A stretch of 64,000 nucleotides of DNA from contig CM037861.1 of NCBI GenBank assembly GCA_021292105.1, forward strand, positions 48,498,634-48,562,633. The letters run 5' to 3'. Positions 25,201-55,472 of this stretch are shown here, one piece after another. The position numbers were made by a program, and so were the translations under genes. This stretch comes from Anadara kagoshimensis (lineage: Eukaryota > Mollusca > Bivalvia > Arcoida > Arcidae). Numbering within the stretch: position 1 is the stretch's first letter; each line of letters opens with the position of its first letter. Below the pieces are notes generated by a model that worked only from the letters and a program-made list of their open reading frames with translations, was not told the DNA's origin and made no database searches.

Positions 25201-28200
25201 TGAATATCAATGTTTTAGAACATGGGGTCCAAAACGGGTGTCTTAGTTCTTAGTCTAATCACGATAGTTGTAAATTTGTTGATTTTTGCTCTATATACAG
25301 AAATAAATGTAATTATTTCAATTTTTCTTGTATTTTTCCTTGTTAGTATTTTTGTTTTTAAACACAAATATTGTGGTTATTTTATGAGACACCAAATGAT
25401 AATATAGCAATTTTAGTTAATGACTGTCTCTAAGTATAAAAGACGAACAATAGTAAACTGTAGTAAGTGAACCTACAAACTTTATCACATTAGGAATTGT
25501 TTAAGTGGGATTCAAATCTAGGAGATGAAAGGCTCCACCAAAGCCCCTGGTTACAAGGCACCACCAAGGCCCCTGGTTACAAGGCACCACCAAGACCCCT
25601 GGTTACAAGACGCCACCAAGACCCCTGGTTACAAGACACCAACAAGGCCCCTGGATACAAGACAAGATTGATATACACTATTGAGACTTCTGATTATACA
25701 TTTCTGAACTTTGAACAGACACTAGATAAAATGACAAAACGGATGATATCCAGTGGCTTTTGTAGGACTTTAACCATCTAACCAATTTATAACTAGTCGT
25801 CCCTAAATTTGCACATAGTATCAAAGTTTGAAGTACCAATGATGTGACAACTAATATCACACATTCTAAAGTTGGTTATGACACAAACAAGCCATAAAAA
25901 GGTTGACAATTTAAAATTTAGGGCTGACTGGCAGGGTTAAGATGGCTCTCCTTTCTGTGATCTACCCTAAACATAACCTCTAATCCGATGAAATGATTCT
26001 AAGTGTTTTTAAGTTAAACATTAGTTTTTTATAGGTCAACCTTCATTGATTTCCACTGAATTATTATAAATCATACAAAAATGCAGAATTTTGATCAAGT
26101 GGCAGACCATAAAAATTATGAAAGCATAAATTATACTATTAAAAATACATCACATATACTTATAAGGTACAACATATTTTCAAAGGTCAATGTCTCTACC
26201 TTAAAGCTGTACCATATATATCAAATGTTTGTATGAACAAAGTTGAATCAACATATTTTCTCTATTGCCCCTAAATTGCCGATTCCCTCCATATCACGAA
26301 ATCAAGAAAAATACACCCCCACCCTTTAAGACATATGTCAATCCTTGAAACAAGTATCAAACTCATTTATGTGGAATGTTTATTTGTCACATTTTGTGTT
26401 AAAAACAAACTAGAAAATAAAAGTACAAATAAAAACAAGACCCCCATGGACCTTTTGCTCACCTGAAGATATGTCAAATATCCCTTGCAGAAGTTAAATA
26501 GTCTGTTGCATTTATTAAAGGGACAATCAAAATGTTCCCTTGCTTGGACCCCATTGCCAAAGTTATTTTCAAATTAAATATTAGTTTTCATAAGAAACCT
26601 TCTTCATAAAATAACTTATGTCTAGCTACAGTATATTTACATACAGTAAATCTGAATTGCACACCTGTTTTTACTTGTGACCAAGTTTTATGAAAATCTG
26701 CCAGTAGTTTCAGAGATAAATTGAAAATGTTAAATTTTATGCAGCAGACAACGATGAAGACAACAATCTCAGGGTTCATGCAGACATTTGGACTCCAAAT
26801 TTAAGGACTTTTAAGGGTCTTATTTGCAAATTTAAGGCCTAATCAAAGGGACAATTTTAGCAAAAAAATATTGGTGCAAAGGTTATTAAATAAATAAAAA
26901 AATTTACTTATGTGTCCATAGTAATGACATTTGAAGTGGAGGTTGGAGTTTGGTGGTCGGGAGAGCCAGATACCTTTAAATTGCTCATTTCAATGCAACT
27001 TTTTAATTAATTTATTTATTCGGTCTAATTTATTTATATATAAGTGTATATCAGTCTATTCGCAACCACTTAATTTCAAAATACAGACACCCAACTGGCC
27101 AAATTCAAGGGCTTTTTTGGGCCTTCAGGACAAATTGAAGGGCTTTTTAGGGTCAAACTTGTTTTTAGGGACTTTTTAAGGCAAACATCAAAATTTAAGG
27201 ACTTTTCCAGGCCTGTACGTACCCTGAAACTTATTTCAGAAAATCTCTCTTGAGACTTTGGCTCAGGTGGGTTAAAAACAGATTTAACATTTTCAATCAT
27301 GAGAAATATAAAATTAACCTAAAACAATATATATTTAAAAATTTAGTTTTACAGATGCATTTATCAATGTTTACATATGTAAAAATTTTTTGGAAATCTT
27401 AAAATAATTTTACATACAGTCCAACCTGCCTTAAAGGCCACCTCTATATAAGGATCACCTGCTTAAAAAGGCCAGTAGAATTGTATCCCAATTGTTTCTT
27501 ATTCATATTATTTGCACCTGTATAAAGGCCAATTTTACTGGTTCCCTTGGGTGGCCTTTATAGACAGGTTTGTCTATGTTTATTTTGATTTGTGGATATC
27601 AATTAATTAAAAATGCATGTGTAAAAATAGTGAATAAATATAGAAACATTGCATCATACTACAACAGTAAACTTTTAGATTGGTCTATTATATGCAAAAC
27701 TAAATTTATACAAACAGGTGTTTGGAAATTCTTAAAAGTTGAAAAATTTGCTGAACAAGGCGTACCATAGCAAATAAAATAGACACGAATATGATCATTT
27801 TATTTCAAAATTGTTTTGAGTGCAAAACATGAAAATTAAAGAAGAGCGGTAGCTACCAGGCAATCCTCTCTCATACAACCTAACACCATACCTGTTCAGG
27901 TGTAATTAATTTTTTTCACAAAGATTAATATCAGGTAGATTAAGTGTTCATATTACAGTTTTAAGTTTTTCTGTCAATGTTTAAAAGATAAACATGAGTG
28001 TCATCACTGAATGTCTTCAGTGGATAATTACAAAACATGCTTTAAATATATAATTACCCCCCTTGTCATGTACAATAATATCCCGCCAGAATAAAACATC
28101 TTCATTATCTGTATAACATTACAAGAAACCTTGATCTAAATCGCTTTTAAAAAATGAATTAGTCGGTTTAAATGAAATTTTATCTTTTTATTTTCTATCT

Positions 28201-40200: not shown

Positions 40201-43200
40201 TGATTTTTCTCAATTCTGCTTTTCATTAACTGAAATGAAACAATGTTGATAGAACAACAAATCAGATAATATCTTAACTCCTACTTTTCAATGACAATCA
40301 AGTATCTTTGGTGAATATTTATAGAAAAAAAAACTTTATACAACCTGCATTTTTAAAAAATCTGGTGTATAAATTTGAAATACTTTGTACAATTAACATC
40401 ACATGAGATCTAAATCATTTAGTCACAATTCTACTATGTTCATTTATACAAGTAATTTGTTTTTCTTCATATTTCCTGAAAATATGGCCTGAAGTCTAAA
40501 GAAATGGAGACATATAAGCCTAATGATCAATGCTGCTGTTGAACACAAGCCAGAAACCGTGAAATGACCTTGAGGCTAGATCAATACAGAGATATCTAGA
40601 ACGAGGATGAATATTTTTCTGTCCAGAACGAGCTTTAGCAAGTTCTGGACATTGAAAACATTCATCCTCATTTTAGATACATGTATCTCTTGTCTTACAC
40701 TGTGATTGGTATATGATTCTTTTCTTCATAAATTTGTAACATGAAAAAGTGATTTGTAAACAAATATTTGCACTAAATGTTCAGTTTTCATGCCACCCAT
40801 CAGTGCCTTCTGAAAATGATGTCATCGAATTCTGTTGACGTTCCTACGTAAAATGATTATGATGTCATCAATTTAGTGTCCGTAAGTTATCGCGTTTCAT
40901 CCGGAATGCCTTCTATTTTTTCATAGAATCAAATTAAGAAGTCAGAGAAATCCAACTAATGCAGGAGATGGTTCGTGTGATGTGTCTCAACCAGGGCGAG
41001 ACAGGGAAGTCTAGCACCGGTGAAAAAGCTGGATCCCCTTGTCACAAGTGTGAGAAATATAATTATAGCCCAACAAACAAAGATAAGGGGTATATAGAAA
41101 TCACCGTCCATCCCAATATCATGTCTGCTCCATATCTGCCATGTCTATGGATGGATTTTGAACAATTTTGACACAAATGGAAACAAACATAAGTGTCTCA
41201 TACCAAATGTACTTGCATAGTTCAAGGGAACATGGTCAACTCTTAGAAATAATAACTCGGCAATTTTGGTAACAGGGATATTCGTCTGTCAAGAAACTGC
41301 TCTACCTTTCCATTGCTAAGATATCAGTAATTAGGTAATACAACTTACATCTTCTTTCCAATGTGTGTGTTCCTGTCTTAACTTGGTATATTTCTGTAAA
41401 CCTTGGTTTAATTTTTTCTCTTCTGCAAGACGTTTTTTATTCAGAGCTACAAGATAAATTGTATATCTAGTTATATGCCCTACAAGACTTGTTGTTTTTA
41501 AAAATCAAAACAAATGGATCAAACAAACAAATTTTAGAGTCAATGTCAAACAAAGCTGTATAAATCCATAGAATGGGGTTTGTCAGCATATCATATGATA
41601 CACATAATGTTTATGTACACAAGAACTATTATTTCAATGGAATATATGCAAATGCATGAAATTGATGTTTCTGTTAATAACAACGATATTCTGAGAATTG
41701 TGACATAATTTTTGTTGCGTGATTTTATGGGATATTGTTCATGTGGTATGTTGATGCATCCTTTTCGATTCTAAGAATTTTTGCAATGTAAAGCTTGCCA
41801 GTCTTAAATCTTCTTCACCAATATCAAATATACAGATTTCTTTAAATAACTTTGTAAACTGGTACATTGTATATACAGTATGAATAATTCTAATTGGGGA
41901 GCTTGGTGGTAGTAGTGTAAAGTGCTGACTTGTGGATCACAGTTTGAATCTCACTCATTGGGATCCTAGTGTGATAAAGTTTGTCATTTCCCTTGTCGAA
42001 AGCTTGTGGTTTCTCTGGGCACTCCAGCTTCTTATACCATTTCAAAACTGACCACTTAAACAAAATAATCTTGCCTGGACATTTAACACCAAGACTCCAT
42101 TCAAATCTCATTCTAGGGTTGTTTTTTTACCTCTCCATAGAGACCAGTCTTTTTTCAAATTTTCACTGGAGGTGGAGATTATTTTAAGCAAAGTGGTTAT
42201 TATTGAAATCAATCAAAATAAATTCAGTGAATACATTAAATTAAATATACCGGTAGTAAAACCTTGATTCATTGTCATCATGTTGATGTCATGGGGTTGG
42301 GGGTGGGGGTGAGGGTGGTAGTTTAGAAATAGTTCAAAGAACAACTTATAAAGAAAAAAATATAAGAAATAGGTTTTGGAACATCAAAGCAGTGTGGTGT
42401 TAAGTTATCAAATGACAATATAACAAGGTTTTACTGCATGTGACATAATTACATACCATTTTCAAAATCTCTAAGTGTATGTCTAACGGCTCTCTGATTT
42501 TTTATAATATCTCCCTCTACTCGCTTTAGTTCTCTCTCTTCCTGTTTGTGTTGCCACATATGATCCTGAAAAAAAGTAAGAAAACCTAATATTTGATCTG
42601 TACATTCAAAACTAAACGATTAATAATGAATCATAAATACAGGTAGATGGACAAACACTATAAATAAATGAAATTATGGGACAAGATTTTGGTATTCAGT
42701 TTTAATTTGTTCATTTTGATTTGACCATATATATACATGTGTAAAGTTATAATGATTTTAAGTAAAGTGTGAAAACCTGTTTGTGCTGCAAATAAAATTT
42801 AAGCTTTATGAAGCAAAAGGGATAACATCACTTCCAAGGAAATGCTCATCCACTGCAAATTTACATCTCTCTCCCCCCCCCCCCTTCCCCCCTCCAATTT
42901 CTACTTGTTGGCATCTATGTGATATTAAGTTTTCAAATTACATGTACCATAACATGATGGTATATGACAAGTTGATGACTCCCAAGGCGTTTTTTTTTTT
43001 CACAGAAAATTGAGTACAATACATAACACCAGCCAAACTGATGAACCAATGGATTTCACTCTTAAGTTTTTTTTTTTTTAAATTAAACTACAATGTGCTC
43101 AATTTCTTGGATCTTCACTTAATTTTACCTCAAATTAAACTGTTTTCAAACAAATAAAAGTTCCCCTAAAAAGCTACAACTGTACAATTAACAAGTGGTA

Positions 43201-46200
43201 AAATGATTACATTTACTGTAGATTCATAACTTGGTTTATCTTTAATCATGCAACTCAAACCTCAACAAACAAATACAAAAGTGTTTTCATGCAGAAAATA
43301 AACATATTCTGATATTGACTATGATTTTTTCAATCAAAGGAAAGTTCTTTATGAATGAAAGAAAACATGCTTGTCAGTGTGGTTCACCAGGGTACCAAAT
43401 TATACCCTATAATGTTTATGCAGAGCAATTATTTCCATTGGAGATGGAATTGTGTCAGTTTACGTTTCCCCAGAAAAATGATGTTATTCCAGGGAATTTT
43501 GACATAAATTTTTCCAAAACATTCCACACAAACATTAAGGGGTATTGATCACTTGGTATGCTGGTGAACACCATTGATTCCTAGCTATGTACATGTATAT
43601 GGTTTCCTTAGTTTGTTTTTTTAACTCAAAATTTCACATGTATACACAAAAATTATTTTGTCAGAAAATGTATTCTCAACAGTCAACTAAACTAGTTTTT
43701 TTAAAGTTGGAACATGCAAACTGTGAAAACATCATTTTTTTAAAATTATAATCTTATCAAAGACACTGAAAGAGCATATGTTTTTGAACAAATAATGAAA
43801 ATTAATTTTCACATAGAAATTCAAACTTTAAAACAACTATGCCAGTCAAAATTATACAAACAGATGCTGTGATCAAAGGGAAACTAGTTGTTTTAAGGAC
43901 AAAATGATACATTTTAGATATTTCTATACGTTTTTGGAAGACAAGTAACATGATTTTATTGATATATTCCTTTTCCCACATTGGCTTTTGAATGACTGAA
44001 TCAGGTTTTTCACCCCAGTCAAGAATGTTACCATCTCATGAGGTGAAGTGACTGAAAATTTTACATTTGAAGCAGCTGCTTTGAAGTGTGCTCAGGTCAA
44101 TATGTAAGGAGGGGACTTTGGCTTGTTATACCTACCATGACATGAGGTATCACTTTATTAAGTCTCTTTTGAAGGATTATTGCTTTTACATTGTAGTTTT
44201 AAATGGTAAGTACTCTGTGAAGGAGCAGTCACAACTTATTTTCAAGTCTTGGTCAGACCTGGCCAGAATCAAACCCTAACCTTCCACTTAGGACATTAGT
44301 GATTGAGATGCATGCATAAAAGTTCACATAAAACATAATATAAGACATTGCTACTGTTTCATGCTAGGAAGAGAAAGGGAGATAACTGAGGATTTCTGAT
44401 TTCAGAGTTTGAAAGAAAACATGACATGAGTGATATAATAAAGGATAAACTACCATACATATATACAAGACAACCTACCACAACCAACTATATCAATACA
44501 TACTGAAAAATAAACAGGTAATAACAAGAACCAAAACCAAATTTACATACGTATAATAGTATTTGAATTTAAGTACAGAAATAACAACATAAAGAAACAT
44601 GGAAATAACATACATGTATATATCAGTATTTGAATTTAAGCATGAAAATAACAGTACATGTATAAAGAAATATGGAAAAACATATAAAAGATGGAACTTA
44701 CAATATACATGTACATTAAATATGACAAAAATGAATGGAGAAAATAAATGAAATAGTAGACTAAACAAGTAACTAGGGTTGAACTATATAGACATACAGT
44801 ACAATATTGTACCCTAAAGCACTTAGTACTGATATACTAACAAGATGAAATTATAATACAGGTACTATCAGGTAAAAAAAGCTGCATCTTAAATTGACTG
44901 ACAGAATAAAGAGAAATGAGATGTAACAACAATATGCATGTAAGCCTGGACTGAACAACTCGGAGCTATCGATCTTAACCATTATATGAATACTTAAATG
45001 CCTACATAAGTGTTAGGTATTAACAATTAATGGATCGCCGGCCACGCCCACAATGTTCCGACAAAGGCCTGGCATGCTTGAATTACACACAATAAGAATG
45101 AAAACTCAGCCTGAATTGTGCTATTTAATGACGACACTGATGCTGGTACATGTATATCATTAGTTGTCATGACACTGCTTTGGTACCATGATGGCGGCCA
45201 GTGTCAGATCATTGTGGACGTGGCTGGCGATCCGTCAATTGTTAGGATAGCTTTGATAACATTTACTTGTCCTGTTTGATTTTGCATTCTTTGTCTACAA
45301 TTTTTAGTTTGCTTATGAAGTAAACTTATTCTAACATAGCAATTGAAAATAATTTACATTTTTTTATTAAAACAAGTAAAATATCTACTACATCACAAAA
45401 AGGTAAATGTTATAAACCTTTAGACCAACTTATCATGAGTATGGCAACCTAAATCCATCACTTAGGACAGTAAACAACAAACAGAACAAAAACATCAATT
45501 TAAACAATCAACATTAAAAAAAATTAAATTATACACCACATGATATACCTTACTAATATATAAATCATAATTGGTTGAACTGCATTTTCAGTCAATTGAA
45601 TTTTTTTTACATTAATGAATAACCACAGAATATGAATTACCAATAGTGATATACACATGTATCAGAGACATCATATTGTACCAAATTTTCCCTCAAAAGC
45701 CCATAATTGTGTAATATTTGTGCTTGGAATTATTATTAATACTGGTTATGTTAATAAATATTTTCCTAAAATTAAACTTTAAAAATATCATTTTTTTCAT
45801 AACCCATACTGTGTAAAAATGCAATGGCTACCTATTACTAAAACAATTCTTTCAAAAAGTGACCTTATTTGGCAGATTTTTGAAAAGGACTACATTTTCA
45901 CGAAATTGTGAAAATTTGGCTGTTAATAATTTTAATTTGTGAAAACCTGGACAATAATGAGAAAACAGGCCTGAACATTAGTAAGTACCATGTGGTGAAT
46001 GGCTAAACTCATTGACAAAACAAAAGAACAAAATTTTAAACAAAAACATAAATTAAACAATGAACAACAGAAATGAAAAAAATAATATAAAAATCAACAA
46101 AAACATAAATGAACAAATATAATTTATGTTATTTACTTTAGCTTCCTAGAATGAAATGAAAAACAAAATTTAAATGAAAATTAATGAAGTGCTAACATTA

Positions 46201-49200
46201 CACCAAATTGAAAATTATGAGGTGCCATTTTACTAATATCACTAGTTCAGTGACAAAGAAATGATGATAACAGGGTTCATACAGACATTTGGACTCAAAA
46301 TTTAAGGACTTTTTAGTGTCTTTTCAAGGTCTTATTTGCAAATTTAAGGCCTAATCAGAGAGACAATTGTAGCAAAAAGATATTGGTGCAAAGGCAATTA
46401 ATTAAAAAAACAAGAGGCCCATGGGCCTTAACGCTCAACTGAGGAAGAGTACATATCTTATGCAGAGGTTAAATGGTCAATGACATTAATAAAAGAGAAT
46501 ATCAAAATTTTCAGCAGTAAGGGCCAATAATATGCAAGTATTTTTGCAAATTAATTATAATAATTATTATATAAGTGTGCTATATTATATATTTAAAGTC
46601 TAGCTACAATATATTATTTATAAACAGCTAAAACATCTGTATATTAAAATGTGCATTAGGCCAATACCTACAATATTCCAATATACATGCCTATACAAAG
46701 AGTTTATAGTTTTTGAGATAATTAACCATTTAAGTATTCGTTTGCATCTATGACCTTGACCTTTGAAACTATGACCTTTATTCATATATCAAAATGATTG
46801 TTGTGCAAATGCCTACAATATTCCAATATACATGCCTATACAAAAAGTTTATAGTTTTTGAGATAATTAACCATTTAAGTATTCGTTCGCATCTATGACC
46901 TTGACCTTTGAACCTATGACCTTCATTCATATATCAAAATGATCATTAGGCCAATAATTACCTTATTCCAATATACATGCCTATACAAAAATTTTTTAGT
47001 TTTTGAGATAATTAACCATTTAAGTATTCATTTGCATCTATGACCTTGACCTTTGAACCTATGACCTTCATTCATATATCAAAATGATCGTTGTGCAAAT
47101 GCCTACAATATTCTAATATACATGCCTATACAAAAAGTTTATAGTTTTTGAGATAATTAACCATTTAAATATTTGTTCAATTCTATGACCTTGACCTTTG
47201 AACCTATGACCTTCATTCATATATCAAAATGATCGTTAGGCCAATACGTACCTTATTCCAATATACATGCCTATACAATAAGTTTTTAGTTTTTGAGATA
47301 ATTAACCATTTAAGTATTCATTTGCATCTATGACCTTGACCTTTAAACCTATGACCTTCATTCATATATCAAAATGATCGTTGTGCAAATGCCTACAATA
47401 TTCTAATATACATGCCTATACAAAAAGTTTATAGTTTTTGAGATAATTAACCATTTAAATATTTGTTCAATTCTATGACCTTGACCTTTGAACCTATGAC
47501 CTTCATTCATATATCAAAATGATCGTTAGGCCAATACGTACCTTATTCCAATATACATGCCTATACAAAAAGTTTATAGTTTTTGAGATAATTAACCATT
47601 TAAGTATTCGTTCGCGTCTATGACCTTGACCTTTGAACCTATGACCTTCATTCATATATCAAAATGATCGTTAGGCCAATAATTACCTTATTCCAATATA
47701 CATGCCTATACAAAAAGTTTATAGTTTTTGAGATAATTAACCATTTAAATATTCGTTTGCGTCTATGACCTTGACCTTTGAACCTATGACCTTCATTGAT
47801 ATATCAAAATGATTGTTAGGCCAATACCTACAATATTCCAATATACATGCCTATACAAAAAGTTTATAGTTTATGAGATAATTAATCATTTCAGTACTTG
47901 TTTACATCTGTGACCTTGACCTTTGAACCCATGACCTTTATTCATATATCAAATTGACCATTGTGCCATTACCTACAATATTCTGATATACATGCCTATA
48001 CAAAAAATTCATAGTTTTGCAGATAATTAACTATTTTGGTATTCTTGGACATCTGTGACCTTGACCTTTGAACCCATGACCCTGATCTATGTATCAAAAT
48101 GATCGTCATGTCAACTGAAAATCCTACGCTATTATCACAAGAAATGTTAAAAAAATAGCATTTTTTATCAAAGGTCAAAAACTGGGACATGACCTTGACC
48201 TTCGACCTTGACATCAATTGAAAGAAAATTGCAAGACAAGATCAACAGTGAAAACTCCATACAATTATCTTCAGTCGTTATGAAGTTATAACAATAAATG
48301 TCTCATTTTAAAAATTACGTAATTTTACGCAAAAAACGCGTAACCTATTTTTCGTCTAATTTTCATGAAAAACACAATTTTAATGTTCCCAGGTATGCTG
48401 AATCCAAATATCCAATCAAAATTTGCCTGCACCTTTTGGTTTCAGAGAAGAAGATTTTTTTGTCTTTTTGCTATTTTTAGTAACAGCGGCAATCTTGTTG
48501 GGCGTGGCCAAACCCCGAACACAATTTTAAAAGGCTGTTACCCAGGCATGATAATCACCAAGTTTCATCAAATATGGCCCAGTAGTTTTGGAGGAGAAGA
48601 TTAAAATGTAAAGTTTACACACGACGGACGACGCACGACGGACGACGGACGGTGATAGATTGCAATAGCTCATCTGAGCCTATGGCTCAGGTGAGCTAAA
48701 AAACCCAATTATTTACATGTCCATAGTAACAACACTTTATAAGTGGAGGTTGAAGTTAGGCGTTTGGGAGACCTAGGTACCTTTAAATTGCTCATTTCAA
48801 TGTAACTTATTAATTAATAAATTAAGACACCCAACTTTCCAAATTCAAGGGCTTTTTAGGGCCTTCAGGATAAATTCAGGGGCTTTTTTGGGTCAGACTT
48901 GTTTTTAGGTTTTTTTTTAGGACAAATCTCAAAATTTAAGGACTTTTCCAGGCCTGTATGAACCCTGGATAGGCGCTAATTACATTTGACATCACTTCTT
49001 TGATTATTAAAGAGATATCACTACCAATGCTATTGAATTTAGTGATAAACATTTCAATTTTTTACCACTAATTTAATTACTGATATCACTAAAACACAGA
49101 ATAAATTGACTATTAAAGAAATATTACTATCCATTCAACTTAATTAAGTTATAAGTAATTTAATTTTTGTTATCACTAATTTAAAGGTCACCGGTCACCA

Positions 49201-49982
49201 AAAACCGAATTTTTTTTAGTACTATTTTCCCAAGGATTACATAATAAAGAGTCGATTTAGCCACAAATAACATTTTTTAATCATTTCTGTCATTAATTAC
49301 AGCGTAAAATAAAGTCCTAAAACTGTTGAAAAACAGTGTTATCTCCCTTTGGTAGTAAAAGGGCATAAAACCGGAAGTGACGCAGAAGGTGTTATAACAG
49401 CTATTGAGTAACTGAAGCTTGTATAGTGAACTGTATTTATTACCCAGATTTATCAATAGTAACTTCTTATTTTTATATATATATTTGTTTATTTTTAGCA
49501 TTGGTTATATCAATTTCCTTCAGCAAAAAAAAAAAAAAATAAAATAAAACAAAAAACATAATAATAAGAAAGAAAGAAAGAAAGAACTGTGAAGTATGAT
49601 TAACTTTTACTAATACTTTTACAAAACATAATTTTACATTTATTTATTTATTTTCATCATTTCTTTTGAAATTTATTTATTTATTTATTTTTATCTAGTT
49701 ATCACAACTAAATAATAAAAAGAACACAAATTTTCGTTTTTTATTTAAAATATAATTTAAATTAATTTGGAGTTATTTATTTATTTATTTTCATCATTTC
49801 TTTTGAAATTTATTTATTTATTTATTTATTTTTATCTATTTACCACAAAGAATTAATAAAAAGAACACAATTTTTTGTTTTTTATTTAAAATATTATTAA
49901 TATTATTTTCATCAGACATATAAAACCCTGTTTTCATTAATATTTAATATCATTTTAATTATTTTAATATCTCTTTTGGGGT

Positions 49983-50025
<43 letters not shown>

Positions 50026-53000
50026 TTTCGGCGAACTAATAAACGGGCAGAGAGAGAGAGAGAGAGAGAGAGAGATTCTAACAGGAAAGAATATGCACAG
50101 TCACTTTAATTTTTGTATAACAAGCAATTTTCGAGTTCTTTATACCGGAGTCCGTAGGTTTTTTCGTCTTCTCTCTAGAAACAGCTATATTATGACCTCA
50201 AATTGTCCGAGACCTGTAGTTTTTTTTTGTACAACAAAATATCAAAATACGGGTTAAAAAATAACTTCTTATTGTCTCTCATATCAAATATTTCATCCCA
50301 GGATAAACGTTTATAAACAATTTCCGATTTATAATAATAATGAAAATTGAAGTTTATGTCAGTGCGTAATTTAAAAAAGAATTATTTGTCTATAAGTCTT
50401 CATGTTTGATTCTCTTTAAATTATTTTCAGTGTTTCCATGATAAAATTTTAAAAAAAAACTATTTTAAAAATTGTCATCATAATAACAATAGTACTAATA
50501 AAAATAACAATACGCCTAATTGTAACTCGGATCAAAATGTGATACCAGTGGGATTATGCTCCAATAAATAACGTCTAAACCAAAACACGAGTAAAACTTT
50601 CTTTCATTTATTCACAATAAATTAATATCGTTTAAAGTGTGATTTACACACCGTCACATACCAGTAATTAAAAGATTATCAATATGCTACATTGGGAAAC
50701 ATCCTGTTTAGAAGTAGACATCTATCACCTGTAATCAACAGAGTTCCAATATGCAACATTAATTGACACGTGTGTACATCTTTATGATATACCCGGTAAA
50801 TGTTATCTGTCATTTTTGATAGATTCTGAAAATCGAATAAATTAAAGTTAAATAAGATTGGTTGATTTGAACAAGAGACATGCAAGTCTCTGTTTGAACG
50901 TATGAACTGGTGAACTGATTGAATTACGGAATTAAAGTAATTTTAAATTAAAATTGATTAAAATCGGTGATTTTTTATTTGACAAAATTTATTAATAATA
51001 ATTAGTCTCAAATAATTACACCACTCTTATTTCCCTGACTTATCTCGTAATACTGAAATACATTCAAAACTGCATGCAGGACTTGTCTAAATCTGGCTTT
51101 AATTTGTTTTGAAATTTGTGAAAAAAAAATTGTTTATCGTTTATTGTGGTATTATTATTGTCAAACTTCAAAAAATATATCATTTTGACTTGAAATCAAA
51201 CTTTAAAACCCTTCAAAATGCCACACAAACCTCCATTTAACATATAGATACATATATAGGTTATGTGTCTTTCCTCAGCAGCTTAACACCATGTACGTCA
51301 TCAATTAGATCGCCGGAAAGTTACGAGCGGTGTCGGAAACTACCGAGTATTAGCAGTTCCTTCAGGTAAGGTTTTAGTGTATTACAGGTAACTGTAAGGT
51401 GTGGGAAACCACCAGACACATCAATATTGATCATTCTACCCAAAGGGATGAAAAATACAAAATTGATAAATTTGGTGACCGGTGACCTTTAATCAGGGAT
51501 ATTACTAAAATAGTAAATAAATCTAGTAAAATGGCACCTCATAGAGAATGCAGGTTCGACCAGCCTTAACTTCCGTGATTTGTTCATATTTGCATTTTAC
51601 AGAAACTATTCATAAGAATCTGTTGTGCTGGTTGAGACATCCTATTCCGGCCCATCACGAGGTAAACCCTGAAACTTAAACCCCAAAGTGCAAATAATGA
51701 AAGCGTTTGTCTACATAAATGTGCTGCTACATTTTTTTTGTAATTTGCTACCCGACAATTACACCTTTACGATAACAAAATCTCACCTGTACTTTATCAA
51801 TTAAACTGCATTGCTTTAAAATATAAATGACGATAATCAAGTTGTTTTAAATTTAAAAGATTATTGGTATTACAAACATGCAGTACCCTCCACACCAAAT
51901 AACAATAATGATTTCTTAAAAGGGCTATCAAAGGGATAGTCTTAATCACATAAACACTAAGTCCTTCAATAAACTTTATTTAAAAACTTCAAAACTTCAA
52001 CACAGACATCAATGCTTACATGGGGTCATTGATGTTTACATTGGGGTGGTTTGAGGGGTATGACATAAATGCTTCTGTATGTTAAACAGGTGGGCCTGAA
52101 AATAGGGTCTTTAAATATTGTTTAAAAATTGAAATGTTGAAGTATGACAAGACTGATTCCCCAAAATCCTGTCGTCAGAGAATATCTTGGATATGTTATT
52201 TACAGGTCTCAGTAACCAGGCAGGGTTTCATCATGTAGCTGGAAATTGGTGAGGTCCTGCAAAATGTACAGACCATATTATGAACTTGTTCCAATATTAG
52301 TAATAAGAAAGTTTAGCGTCATAGCTGTCATGAAAACTTATTCTCACAATATGTTTTCTATAATGAAGACTTAAGTACCACACATATACATATATATGAC
52401 TACTGTACATAACATTCTAATCTTTTAAGTGAGGTGAATGTTCAATGTAACACGCTGATGACACAAAACTAGATTAAAATAAAAATATCTGTCTCTATAA
52501 CTATATAGTTACCTCAATAACTTTAACTTTCTTATTATAATCTTTCTTGTCTCTCTCAATTCTACTAGAAAGGGAGACAACTGAGGGTCTACCTCCATCA
52601 TAAGAAGACCGTGCCTTATCCCTCTTCTTCAGCGTATAAGAGTGAGTGTATCTCCCAGAGTCCAAAAATCCCTCAGGACCAACTTTCCTGTCTTGCTCCC
52701 TATAAAGAAAAAAAAACTGCATTAACAGCTTGTCTTATGCCCAGACCTTTACATAATCACAACAGTAGGTATATGTTATAGTGTTGAATAACTGAACAGT
52801 TCTGCTTACCAAAATTGGCCCACTTAGCAAAGTGGTTTATATGAAAAAATTGCCATTTAAAAAATATATAAATAAAATACCTCTTCAAATAAAAATCTTT
52901 TCACAGATGTAAAATTTACTAACACCTGTATTGTTATTTTCTCATTAAAAAAAAATATATATATATACCCAGTGATCTAAATGAAATGTTATTGAATGTT

Positions 53001-53821: not shown

Positions 53822-55472
53822 CCAGCCCGTCACACACTTATATTGAGGCAGTCACTTCTGGGTGGAGGAAAATGGAGTGCCTGGAGAAAAACACTGACCT
53901 TCAGGAAGTGAACTGACAAACTTTTTTGTACCATAGGGTATAGTCCGACTAATCAGCCCACTAAAACCCCATTTTAATTTTTTGACTTTTTGGAGGTTTG
54001 TGGTCTGACAGCTTCCATTATTGAATTCTTGAAATTTCTGGCAAAAACGGCAGAAACGAAAACACGAGTCGATAATTTCCAGTATTTCCTTACCTCGCTC
54101 TTGTTGACTACATGGAACATGTCCTAAAACATTATTCTACCGATCCATGCTTAATTTTTAATCAAAATCCATCGATATCGGTAGAAATACAAGGTTTTCT
54201 GATGTCTCGTCAGCTCTCTGCCACTTTCGCATCGTGAAGACATTACTAATCTGCATTGACCAATCAGATCGTGCGTTGCATTTGGATGGTGAAACTCACA
54301 GTTCTATCTTTGGAAAGCACATGGCGATGTTTATTTACATTAACGATTCGCATTATTAATAATATTTTCACACGTATAACATATTATTTTAGTTATTTTA
54401 TTTTCATCAATATCATGTGAAGACATGTGTACTATAAATCCAGTGAAGATTTCTCATCTTTTTTTCTCTCGTTTATATCTAAATTATTTTTTCTTTCAAA
54501 TTTGTTAATATTCTATCATATCTGGGACTTGCATGTTCTCCTGAAATGCTGTCAAGTTTTTTCCAATATTTTGTAGATCGTAGAATTATAAGTTTTTAAA
54601 CCAGTTGTAATATATAAAATTCAATACAAGAGTACTTGCCCGCAAGGTCATTAAAATTAATTCTCTTATATTCATCCCGACCACACTGTAATTTTTGTCA
54701 TAGGGTTCAATTTTTAACTGTATTTTGCGTGAACATACATATATACAAGGAGGTGCTAAATTCTTTCTCTCCAAAATTACTGGAATAATATTTCCAGGAT
54801 ACTAGTTCAGAAAAAAATGAGAGGGGTCAAGAATATAAAAATATACAGAGAAGATCGCGACTACTCCATATAAATCAGACAATTATATCTCTAAATATTT
54901 TGAATGCATTTCAATGTTACCTTTTGTAAGTACATGTATTAAACGCCATGTAAAACATCCTTAATAACGCGAATTACCAATGTAAATAAACATCGCCATG
55001 TGCTTTCTAAAGATAGAACTGCGAGTTTCACCATCCAAATGCAACGCGCGATCTGATTGGTCAATGCAGATTAGTAATGTCTTCATGATGCGAAAGTGAC
55101 ATAGAGCTGAAGAGACATCAGAAAACCTTGTATTTCTACCGATATCGATGGATTTTAATTAAAAGTTAAGCATGGATCGGTAGAAAAATGTTTTAGGAAG
55201 TGTTCCATGTTGTCAACAAGAGCGAGGTAAGGAAATACTGGAAATTATCGACACATGTTTTCGTTTCTGCCAATTTCGCCAGAAATTTCAAGAATTCAAT
55301 AATGGAAGCTGTCAGACCACAAACCTCCAAAAAGTCAAAAAATTAAACCGTGGGTTTAGTGGGCTGATTAGTCGGACTACATAGGGTATGGACCCAAGTG
55401 CCATTTGAATCCAAATGGTGAGAGACACTGTGGTTCATAAGACAAAAGTCAAGAGTTCTAGAACACTTGGCC
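53822..55472 (-). mobile_element. SINE type 2 split by the foldback element
   Basis: 53822-53940 holds the SINE body complement (GGTGGAGGAAAATGGAGTGC; AAGTGAACTGACAAACTTTT) and 55389-55472 the head complement (ACACTTGGCCAC). The foldback element lies exactly between them. Confidence 0.65.
53941..55379. mobile_element. MULE-like foldback element with ~420-bp TIRs and 9-bp TSD
   Basis: Left arm 53941 to about 54363 and right arm about 54958 to 55379 are inverted copies with few differences, starting TAGTCCGACTAATCAGCCCA. The 9-bp sequence CATAGGGTA flanks both sides perfectly (53932-53940, 55380-55388). Very long TIRs plus a 9-bp duplication are typical of Mutator-like elements. The ~595-bp centre has no meaningful ORF, so it is non-autonomous. 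Confidence 0.88.

What the first reader, a model, noticed from the sequence alone, without database searches (positions are those of the whole stretch)
46216..51543. Four-level transposon nest in one intron
Seen: an outer TA-flanked element (46218-51541) contains a CAGGG-type MITE (46271-48967), which contains a pearl-like element (46408-48698), which contains a 146-bp satellite; the same outer element separately holds a TTAA-flanked element (49185-51488) with microsatellites in its core. The order of insertion can be read directly: outer first, then MITE and TTAA element, then pearl-like element. The uninterrupted MITE at 26770-27226 acts as an empty-site reference.
Basis: seen in the sequence. 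Interest (0 to 1): 0.7.

Follow-up and report, generated by a model that had tools for sequence, protein, structure and literature searches.

The report
Nested transposons with natural empty sites
A stack of ordinary non-coding jumping genes sits inside what looks like a gene's intron in a probable clam genome, and a second copy of the same stretch in the assembly lacks the two youngest insertions, so much of the order in which the stack was built can be read directly.

Summary
It holds four insertions on two branches (outer ⊃ MITE ⊃ pearl-like; outer ⊃ TTAA element). The tandem repeat (145 bp, 10.1 copies) is part of the pearl-like element, not a further insertion. The decisive evidence is a second, inverted copy of the locus 2.28 Mb away on the same scaffold. 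It keeps the outer element and the MITE at about 97-98% identity but has clean empty sites for the pearl-like and TTAA elements. The second copy is most likely the other haplotype, left uncollapsed: two of three RNA-polymerase second-subunit loci are also doubled on one scaffold. The inner layers would then be heterozygous insertions. The pearl-like element resembles Helentron-derived HINEs, the TTAA element non-autonomous Kolobok; the MITE mostly shows 5-bp target duplications, and the outer element is an unassigned TA-flanked TIR family. The nest lies between two probable exons of a minus-strand gene. It is well resolved but ordinary in kind. One unusual detail: the MITE's A-tract was hit twice independently by pearl-like elements within 20 kb.

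The parts
46216..51543 (.). Outer TIR element with its TA flanks (TA 46216-46217 and 51542-51543); about 320 bp of its own sequence once the inserts are set aside
   Evidence: 20-bp perfect TIR; TIR 97 hits vs 8 control; four paired relatives of 202, 544, 511 and 932 bp (pairs read; fetched; compared); also present in the second copy
46271..48967 (+). CAGGG MITE (about 400 bp of its own) interrupted by the pearl-like element; imperfect 5-bp target duplication GATAA/GATAG
   Evidence: Ends; exact 5-bp duplication in 8 of 12 independent family sites; present in the second copy
46410..48702 (+). Pearl-like (HINE-like) element inserted in the MITE's A-tract; edges uncertain by about 6 bases within the A run
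   Evidence: Empty site in the second copy; terminal stem-loop z -5.99; 2,816 genomic copies of the 5' end at up to 3 mismatches, control 0
46640..48106 (+). 145-bp tandem repeat, 10.1 copies, inside the pearl-like element
   Evidence: TRF; two other copies of the element carry 6.8 and 4.1 units
48666..48702 (+). 3' terminal palindrome of the pearl-like element (15-bp stem, 3-nt loop), then an A run
49181..51492 (.). TTAA-flanked element (AGGTCACCGGTCACC... termini), flanking TTAA copies included, with a 141-bp repeat and microsatellites in its core
   Evidence: 22-bp perfect inverted repeat; single TTAA in the empty copy; 17 of 19 fetched relatives begin exactly at TTAA-AGG with unrelated flanks; core repeats
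26770..27226 (+). Second MITE copy; empty here, but filled by another pearl-like element in the second copy of the locus
52513..52699 (-). Probable host-gene exon upstream of the nest
   Evidence: Splice-bounded open frame; 2 of 2 differences between the two copies at third positions
42457..42565 (-). Probable host-gene exon downstream of the nest
   Evidence: Splice-bounded open frame; 3 of 3 differences between the two copies at third positions

Best explanation
Four non-autonomous transposons inserted one after another in an intron of a minus-strand gene. First came a TA-flanked TIR element, then a CAGGG MITE with a 5-bp target duplication. The locus then diverged into two copies, most likely the two haplotypes of the sequenced animal, both of which ended up in the assembly. 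After that split, one copy received a pearl-like, Helentron-type element in the A-tract of the MITE and a Kolobok-type TTAA element in the outer element. Shown here: the boundaries, the families of repeats, the two empty sites and the two-stage order. Inferred: movement in trans by a Rep/helicase (pearl-like), a Kolobok transposase (TTAA) and unidentified transposases (MITE, outer), and the haplotype status of the second copy (I put that sub-claim at about 0.75).
For: The second copy aligns to 46001-46413, 48698-49184 and 51488-51800 at 97.8, 97.5 and 96.8% and lacks just the two inner elements. The TTAA empty site has one TTAA where the filled site has two. All three pearl-like filled/empty pairs compared sit in A runs. 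Family divergence agrees with the order: alignments of 150 columns or more between the outer element and its fetched relatives are 58.9-68.0%, MITE copies are 85.0-91.9% from the nest MITE, the 39 best-scoring other pearl-like 3' ends are 96-98%, and TTAA left ends are 96.0-99.2% in the 19 fetched copies. The last two sets are the best scorers of 1,702 and 1,139 candidates, so they lean high. Haplotype reading: the RNA polymerase second-subunit domain (PF00562) gives one intron-bearing locus on C1 but two on C9 (about 0.17 Mb apart, opposite strands) and two on C14 (2.0 Mb apart, same strand); a probe at C5:47.60 Mb has a 98% same-strand copy of 2,278 of its 3,000 bases at 49.66 Mb.
Against: No empty site was found for the outer element or the MITE, so their order rests on containment alone. 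The TA duplication of the outer element cannot be separated from its TIR. Precise excision could mimic the empty TTAA site. The mismatch rate over the whole chain is 4.2% (2,550 of 61,309 columns), high for two alleles, though it includes poorly aligned repeats. The doubled RNA-polymerase loci were not fetched, so their identity to each other is unknown. Two other doubled stretches fit less neatly: one on C12 is 100% identical over 3,147 bp, one on C19 only 86.3% over 636 columns. No read depth is available.
Confidence: 0.87

Rival explanations
1. The 46.27 Mb copy is a true inverted segmental duplication, and the pearl-like and TTAA elements inserted after the duplication. The insertion order is unchanged, but the inner layers are paralogue-specific and need not be polymorphic.
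For: The colinear copy is inverted and spans at least 80 kb; the mismatch rate of 4.2% is on the high side for alleles; doubled stretches elsewhere range from 86.3 to 100% identity.
Against: A C5 probe and 2 of 3 RNA-polymerase second-subunit loci are also doubled, 0.17-2.1 Mb apart on the same scaffolds and in either orientation, as expected of uncollapsed, shuffled haplotype pieces.
Confidence: 0.22
2. The second copy once carried the TTAA and/or pearl-like element and lost it, so the empty sites are secondary.
For: TTAA-targeting elements of the piggyBac type can excise without a footprint (recalled).
Against: Rolling-circle elements are not known to excise precisely (recalled), and both sites would need seamless loss. 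Clean one-sided differences between the copies run in both directions: 5 window-only and 9 copy-only among 14.
Confidence: 0.06
3. The nest moved or was duplicated as a composite unit rather than built in place.
For: The outer body occurs at two places.
Against: Both places share flanks far outside the outer element, and the second lacks the inner elements. One search showed no third place.
Confidence: 0.01

Closest known systems
HINE / Pearl elements of bivalves (non-autonomous Helentrons; PMC7492417 and PMC4067079, passages read)
   Same: Left and right modules around a short array of satellite-like repeats, subterminal inverted repeats of about 11 bp, 3' palindrome, no target duplication, insertion in T/A runs.
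   Different: Unit of 145 bp and up to 10.1 copies, whereas a passage read in PMC7492417 gives up to six repeats of about 160 bp for Pearl. The left end carries a 14-bp palindrome of its own rather than an inverted repeat complementary to the subterminal repeat. The nest copy's subterminal repeat has one mismatch. No autonomous partner was sought.
Non-autonomous Kolobok elements such as T2-MITE/Xmix (PMC6004289 and PMC9587614, passages read)
   Same: TTAA target duplication, termini 5'-AG...CT-3' (RR...YY), simple-sequence repeats in the core, no recognised transposase.
   Different: About 2.3 kb with a 22-bp TTAA-inclusive inverted repeat. The long terminal direct repeats that define KolobokP were not noticed, but were not searched for. 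No transposase relation was shown.
hAT-type MITEs (recalled consensus)
   Same: CAGGG terminus and short target duplication of 5 bp.
   Different: hAT duplications are usually 8 bp (recalled). No transposase link was tested.
TA-targeting (Tc1/mariner-like) MITEs (recalled)
   Same: TA at both ends and short TIR.
   Different: The TIR starts TGAGGTGCC, and the interior holds diverged ATATCACTAATTC-like repeats (read). Superfamily not assigned.

Membership tests
HINE (non-autonomous Helentron) | Insertion without target duplication into T/A runs | tested here: met
   3 of 3 filled/empty pairs lie in A runs with no duplication beyond differences in the number of A
HINE (non-autonomous Helentron) | 3' palindrome able to form a stem-loop | tested here: met
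   15-bp stem in the nest copy, z -5.99, 0 of 200 shuffles fold as well; the site B copy has lost one arm
HINE (non-autonomous Helentron) | Subterminal inverted repeats of about 11-13 bp | tested here: met
   11 bp perfect in site A, 10 of 11 in the nest, not found in the 3'-truncated site B; 0 of 1000 shuffles of the nest ends reach a perfect 11
HINE (non-autonomous Helentron) | 5' inverted repeat complementary to the subterminal repeat (or, in some families, palindromic subterminal repeats instead) | tested here: inconclusive
   In 3 of 3 copies the best close inverted pair at the left end is a separate 14-bp palindrome AGGCCCATGGGCCT, not a complement of the subterminal repeat; PMC4067079 passages describe families with palindromic repeats in place of it
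HINE (non-autonomous Helentron) | Ends shared with an autonomous Rep/helicase element | not tested
   No partner search was made
Kolobok (non-autonomous) | 4-bp TTAA target duplication | tested here: met
   One TTAA in the empty copy, two in the filled; 17 of 19 fetched relatives start at TTAA-AGG
Kolobok (non-autonomous) | Termini 5'-RR and YY-3' | tested here: met
   AG...CT; criterion from PMC9587614 passages
Kolobok (non-autonomous) | Ends shared with an element encoding a Kolobok transposase | tested here: inconclusive
   Three long or variant copies (L052-L054) show no transposase-like frame by eye within the element; no profile search was run on them
hAT-type MITE | 8-bp (5-8 bp) target duplication | tested here: inconclusive
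   14 loci, 13 with both ends, 12 independent: exact 5 bp in 8 (two of them in simple TA or A runs), 6 bp in 1, 11 bp in 1 (L005=L006 counted once), 5 bp with one mismatch in 1, none in 1
TA-targeting TIR element | TA target duplication | tested here: inconclusive
   TA at both ends here and in the 4 fetched paired relatives, and 87 of 97 TIR hits begin with TA, though the search pattern itself held TA; no empty site was found

The most novel reading that the evidence does not exclude
The A-tract of this MITE family is a recurrent landing pad for pearl-like rolling-circle elements. Two MITEs 20 kb apart were each hit at the homologous tract, one on each copy of the locus, so MITE spread would steadily create targets for Helentron-type elements and the satellite repeats they carry.
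Probability: 0.35. Interest if true: 0.4.

Novelty: new member of a known kind. Interest (0 to 1): 0.3.

Why it matters
Nested transposons are common, and order by containment is routine. What this locus adds is a natural pair of filled and empty sites for two layers at once, plus 12 further clean one-sided differences in the same 80 kb (14 of the 31 gaps in the chain). A heterozygous, incompletely collapsed assembly can thus be used to order insertions and read target duplications without a second species. It also warns that such assemblies may double genuinely single loci.

Tried and rejected
Treating the 145-bp array as its own insertion layer: rejected, because two other copies of the same element carry the array with 6.8 and 4.1 units. 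Using the 26770 MITE as the empty site: replaced by the second copy. Reading long or variant TTAA copies as autonomous: L052 (4.0 kb) and L054 (5.3 kb) carry internal extra sequence with no transposase-like frame by eye, and L053 is a diverged copy of about 2.26 kb. Giant-palindrome reading of C5: the 47.60 Mb probe matched on the same strand, not mirrored. The second probe, at 48.90 Mb, fell in a tandem array and was uninformative. Pfam on five frames of the nest: no family. Host gene: exon pieces joined by hand gave only one Pfam hit below its cut-off (E 0.078) and no solved-structure match, so the gene is unnamed. The frame filter used to find exons passed 48 of 323 frames, plus-strand ones included, so only the splice-bounded frames are used as evidence. 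Species: not identified; the bivalve reading is an inference from pearl-like elements, genome size and scaffold layout.
Full report
Setting. The window is G000:C5:48498634-48562633 of a 1.115-Gb genome in 36 contigs. The pearl-like elements and the layout of the scaffolds suggest a bivalve, which is inference.

Observation. The inverted-repeat search gives a 20-bp perfect repeat at the outer ends (46216-46235 / 51524-51543) and a 22-bp perfect repeat at the TTAA element (49181-49202 / 51471-51492). Both CAGGG ends of the MITE are at 46271 and 48967. The tandem array is 46640-48106, period 145, 10.1 copies.

Second copy and empty sites. A search with the left end of the nest found C5:46268423-46268620 on the other strand at 98%. 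Comparison showed 46001-46413, 48698-49184 and 51488-51800 aligned to it at 97.8, 97.5 and 96.8%, so it lacks 46414-48697 and 49185-51487. The base-level alignment shows a run of A where the pearl-like element sits in the window, and one TTAA where the window has the TTAA element between two. The colinearity, inverted, continues for at least 80 kb and is limited by what I fetched. The chain has 32 aligned blocks and 31 gaps; 61,309 columns align with 2,550 mismatches (4.2%). Of the 31 gaps, 14 are cleanly one-sided (over 100 bases on one side, none on the other), 5 window-only and 9 copy-only; the other 17 have sequence on both sides (ends printed). Several of the 14 have transposon-like ends and short overlaps that look like target duplications.

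Outer element. Its TIR has 97 hits at up to 2 mismatches in the genome, four of them the nest and its second copy, against 8 for the reversed pattern. Facing hits define elements on C4 (202 bp), C18 (544 bp), C19 (511 bp) and C15 (932 bp); a facing pair 5.06 kb apart on C10 was not fetched. With three single-ended loci these four make the seven that I fetched. They share the ends and a diverged repeat-rich interior: alignments of 150 columns or more are 58.9-68.0%, shorter ones up to 95%. The outer body (48968-49180) has two places in the genome, the nest and the second copy. No empty site for the outer element was found.

MITE. The 40 best of 1,707 candidates were scored, and an internal exact 15-mer occurs 623 times against 2 for the control. 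Of 14 loci looked at, 13 gave both ends; L057 did not. L005 and L006 are one duplicated block (100% over 3,147 bp), so 12 sites are independent. Of these, 8 have an exact 5-bp duplication (L004 and L064 in simple runs), 1 has 6 bp, 1 has 11 bp, 1 has 5 bp with a mismatch and 1 has none. The nest MITE is 85.0-91.9% identical to these copies and 87.1% to the 26770 copy. Its own flanks read GATAA/GATAG. The 26770 MITE shows no clear duplication in the listing.

Pearl-like element. Three filled/empty pairs between the two copies of the region (nest; window 18873; window 26898) all sit in A runs. The 5' end (40 bases, up to 3 mismatches) occurs 2,816 times, control 0. Of 1,702 candidates the 40 best 3' ends were scored; the 39 others are 96-98% identical to the nest copy. 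The 3' palindrome folds at z -5.99. Subterminal repeats are 11 bp perfect in one copy, one mismatch off in the nest copy, and not found in the third, whose 3' palindrome is truncated. The left end carries a 14-bp palindrome instead of the 5' inverted repeat described for HINEs. Most features match the HINE description in the passages read of PMC7492417 and PMC4067079, so I call it HINE-like.

TTAA element. The left end (250 bp) and the right end (343 bp) each give 40 scored matches from 1,139 and 1,202 candidates. Pairing the two capped lists by eye, 19 other loci have both ends 2.1-2.5 kb apart, and a few have them 3.4-12.7 kb apart. In the 19 fetched relatives (the best scorers) the identity to the nest copy is 96.0-99.2%, and 17 of 19 start exactly at TTAA-AGG with unrelated flanks; L034 lacks the first 12 bases and L041 the first 3. 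PMC9587614 (passages) gives TTAA plus 5'-RR/YY-3' as the Kolobok signature. PMC6004289 (passages) describes Kolobok MITEs with simple-sequence cores. No coding frame was recognised.

Order and age. Outer and MITE were in place before the two copies split, and the pearl-like and TTAA elements came after. Their mutual order is not resolved. Family divergence ranks the layers in a compatible way but does not date the insertions themselves.

Allele or paralogue. A 3-kb probe at C5:47.60 Mb has a 98% copy (2,278 of 3,000 bases) at 49.66 Mb on the same strand, so C5 is not one large palindrome. PF00562, for which three genes are expected in an animal (recalled), gave one intron-bearing locus on C1, two on C9 about 0.17 Mb apart on opposite strands and two on C14 2.0 Mb apart on the same strand, besides one match on C22 that looks bacterial (28 matches from 34 candidates). 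I did not fetch these loci, so their mutual identity is unknown; exon scores within each pair are close. Doubling of such genes on one scaffold is best explained by uncollapsed haplotypes. Other doubled stretches are mixed: 100% over 3,147 bp on C12 and 86.3% over 636 columns on C19, while the L003/L004 and L007/L008 comparisons showed only shared repeats. PMC9646362 (passages) reports k-mer heterozygosity of 3.57% and haplotype-specific mobile-element insertions in a pearl oyster, so the divergence here is plausible for alleles. I give the haplotype reading about 0.75.

Host gene. Splice-bounded open frames on the minus strand at 52513-52699 (187 bp) and 42457-42565 (109 bp) flank the nest, and their phases join. 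Between the two copies they differ at 2 and 3 bases, all at third positions, with no gaps. Other frames along the minus strand look similar, but the filter that found them also passed plus-strand frames (48 of 323 in all). The gene could not be named.

Recurrent target. The exact junction MITE-to-pearl-like occurs three times in the genome: the nest, the second copy's 26770 MITE, and C14; control 0. The two pearl-like elements in this region are different insertions (92% identity, 10.1 against 4.1 repeat units). A rough expectation from 2,816 elements, half in each orientation, and 623 MITEs with 26 positions each is 0.02, or about 0.07 if there were 2,000 MITEs (my arithmetic). The excess is partly post hoc, since the nest itself is one of the three, and it is what a preference for A runs would give.

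Print. Six literature searches listed known HINE/Pearl, Kolobok and haplotype papers. Nothing describing this nest was seen in the listings, but the library is partial. Verdict: real, well resolved, ordinary in kind.

Noticed in passing
G000:C22:11302-12450: An intronless match over nearly the whole RNA polymerase beta-subunit domain (positions 4-373 of 373), with a 728-aa open frame and one TGA inside the match; this contig is probably bacterial contamination or a symbiont.
   Followed up: no
G000:C5:48825920-48916775: A probe at 48.90 Mb lies in a tandem array with spacings of about 4.4 and 6.3 kb, with 97-100% copies on C16, C17, C9, C2 and C19; possibly a multigene repeat array.
   Followed up: no
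window 53942-55379: Window-only insertion of about 1.44 kb with an overlap of about 10 bp (CATAGGGTAT) and inverted ends TAGTCCGACTAATCAGCCCACTAAA; another TIR element absent from the second copy.
   Followed up: partly
window 11734 and 20954 (insertions in the second copy): Two copy-only insertions of 313 and 363 bp with 13-15 bp overlaps and a GTTGAGTTGAG-type end; they look like SINEs.
   Followed up: no
window 18576 (insertion in the second copy): Copy-only 853-bp insertion with TA overlap and CAGTTGAATCTCGTTATCTCGAA-like ends, a Tc1/pogo-like MITE by appearance.
   Followed up: no
G000:C12:17511976-17515122 and 17791369-17794515 (L006, L005): 3,147-bp blocks 279 kb apart are 100% identical, a further sign of duplicated stretches in the assembly.
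   Followed up: partly
G000:C19:10203180-10203800 and 10577200-10577810 (L050, L051): Two outer-family loci 374 kb apart are inverted copies of each other, flanks included, at 86.3% over 636 columns.
   Followed up: partly
L053, reverse complement, about 1469-2020: Next to a TTAA-element relative lies a 184-aa frame that looks like a retrotransposon RNase H region (read by eye, not searched).
   Followed up: no
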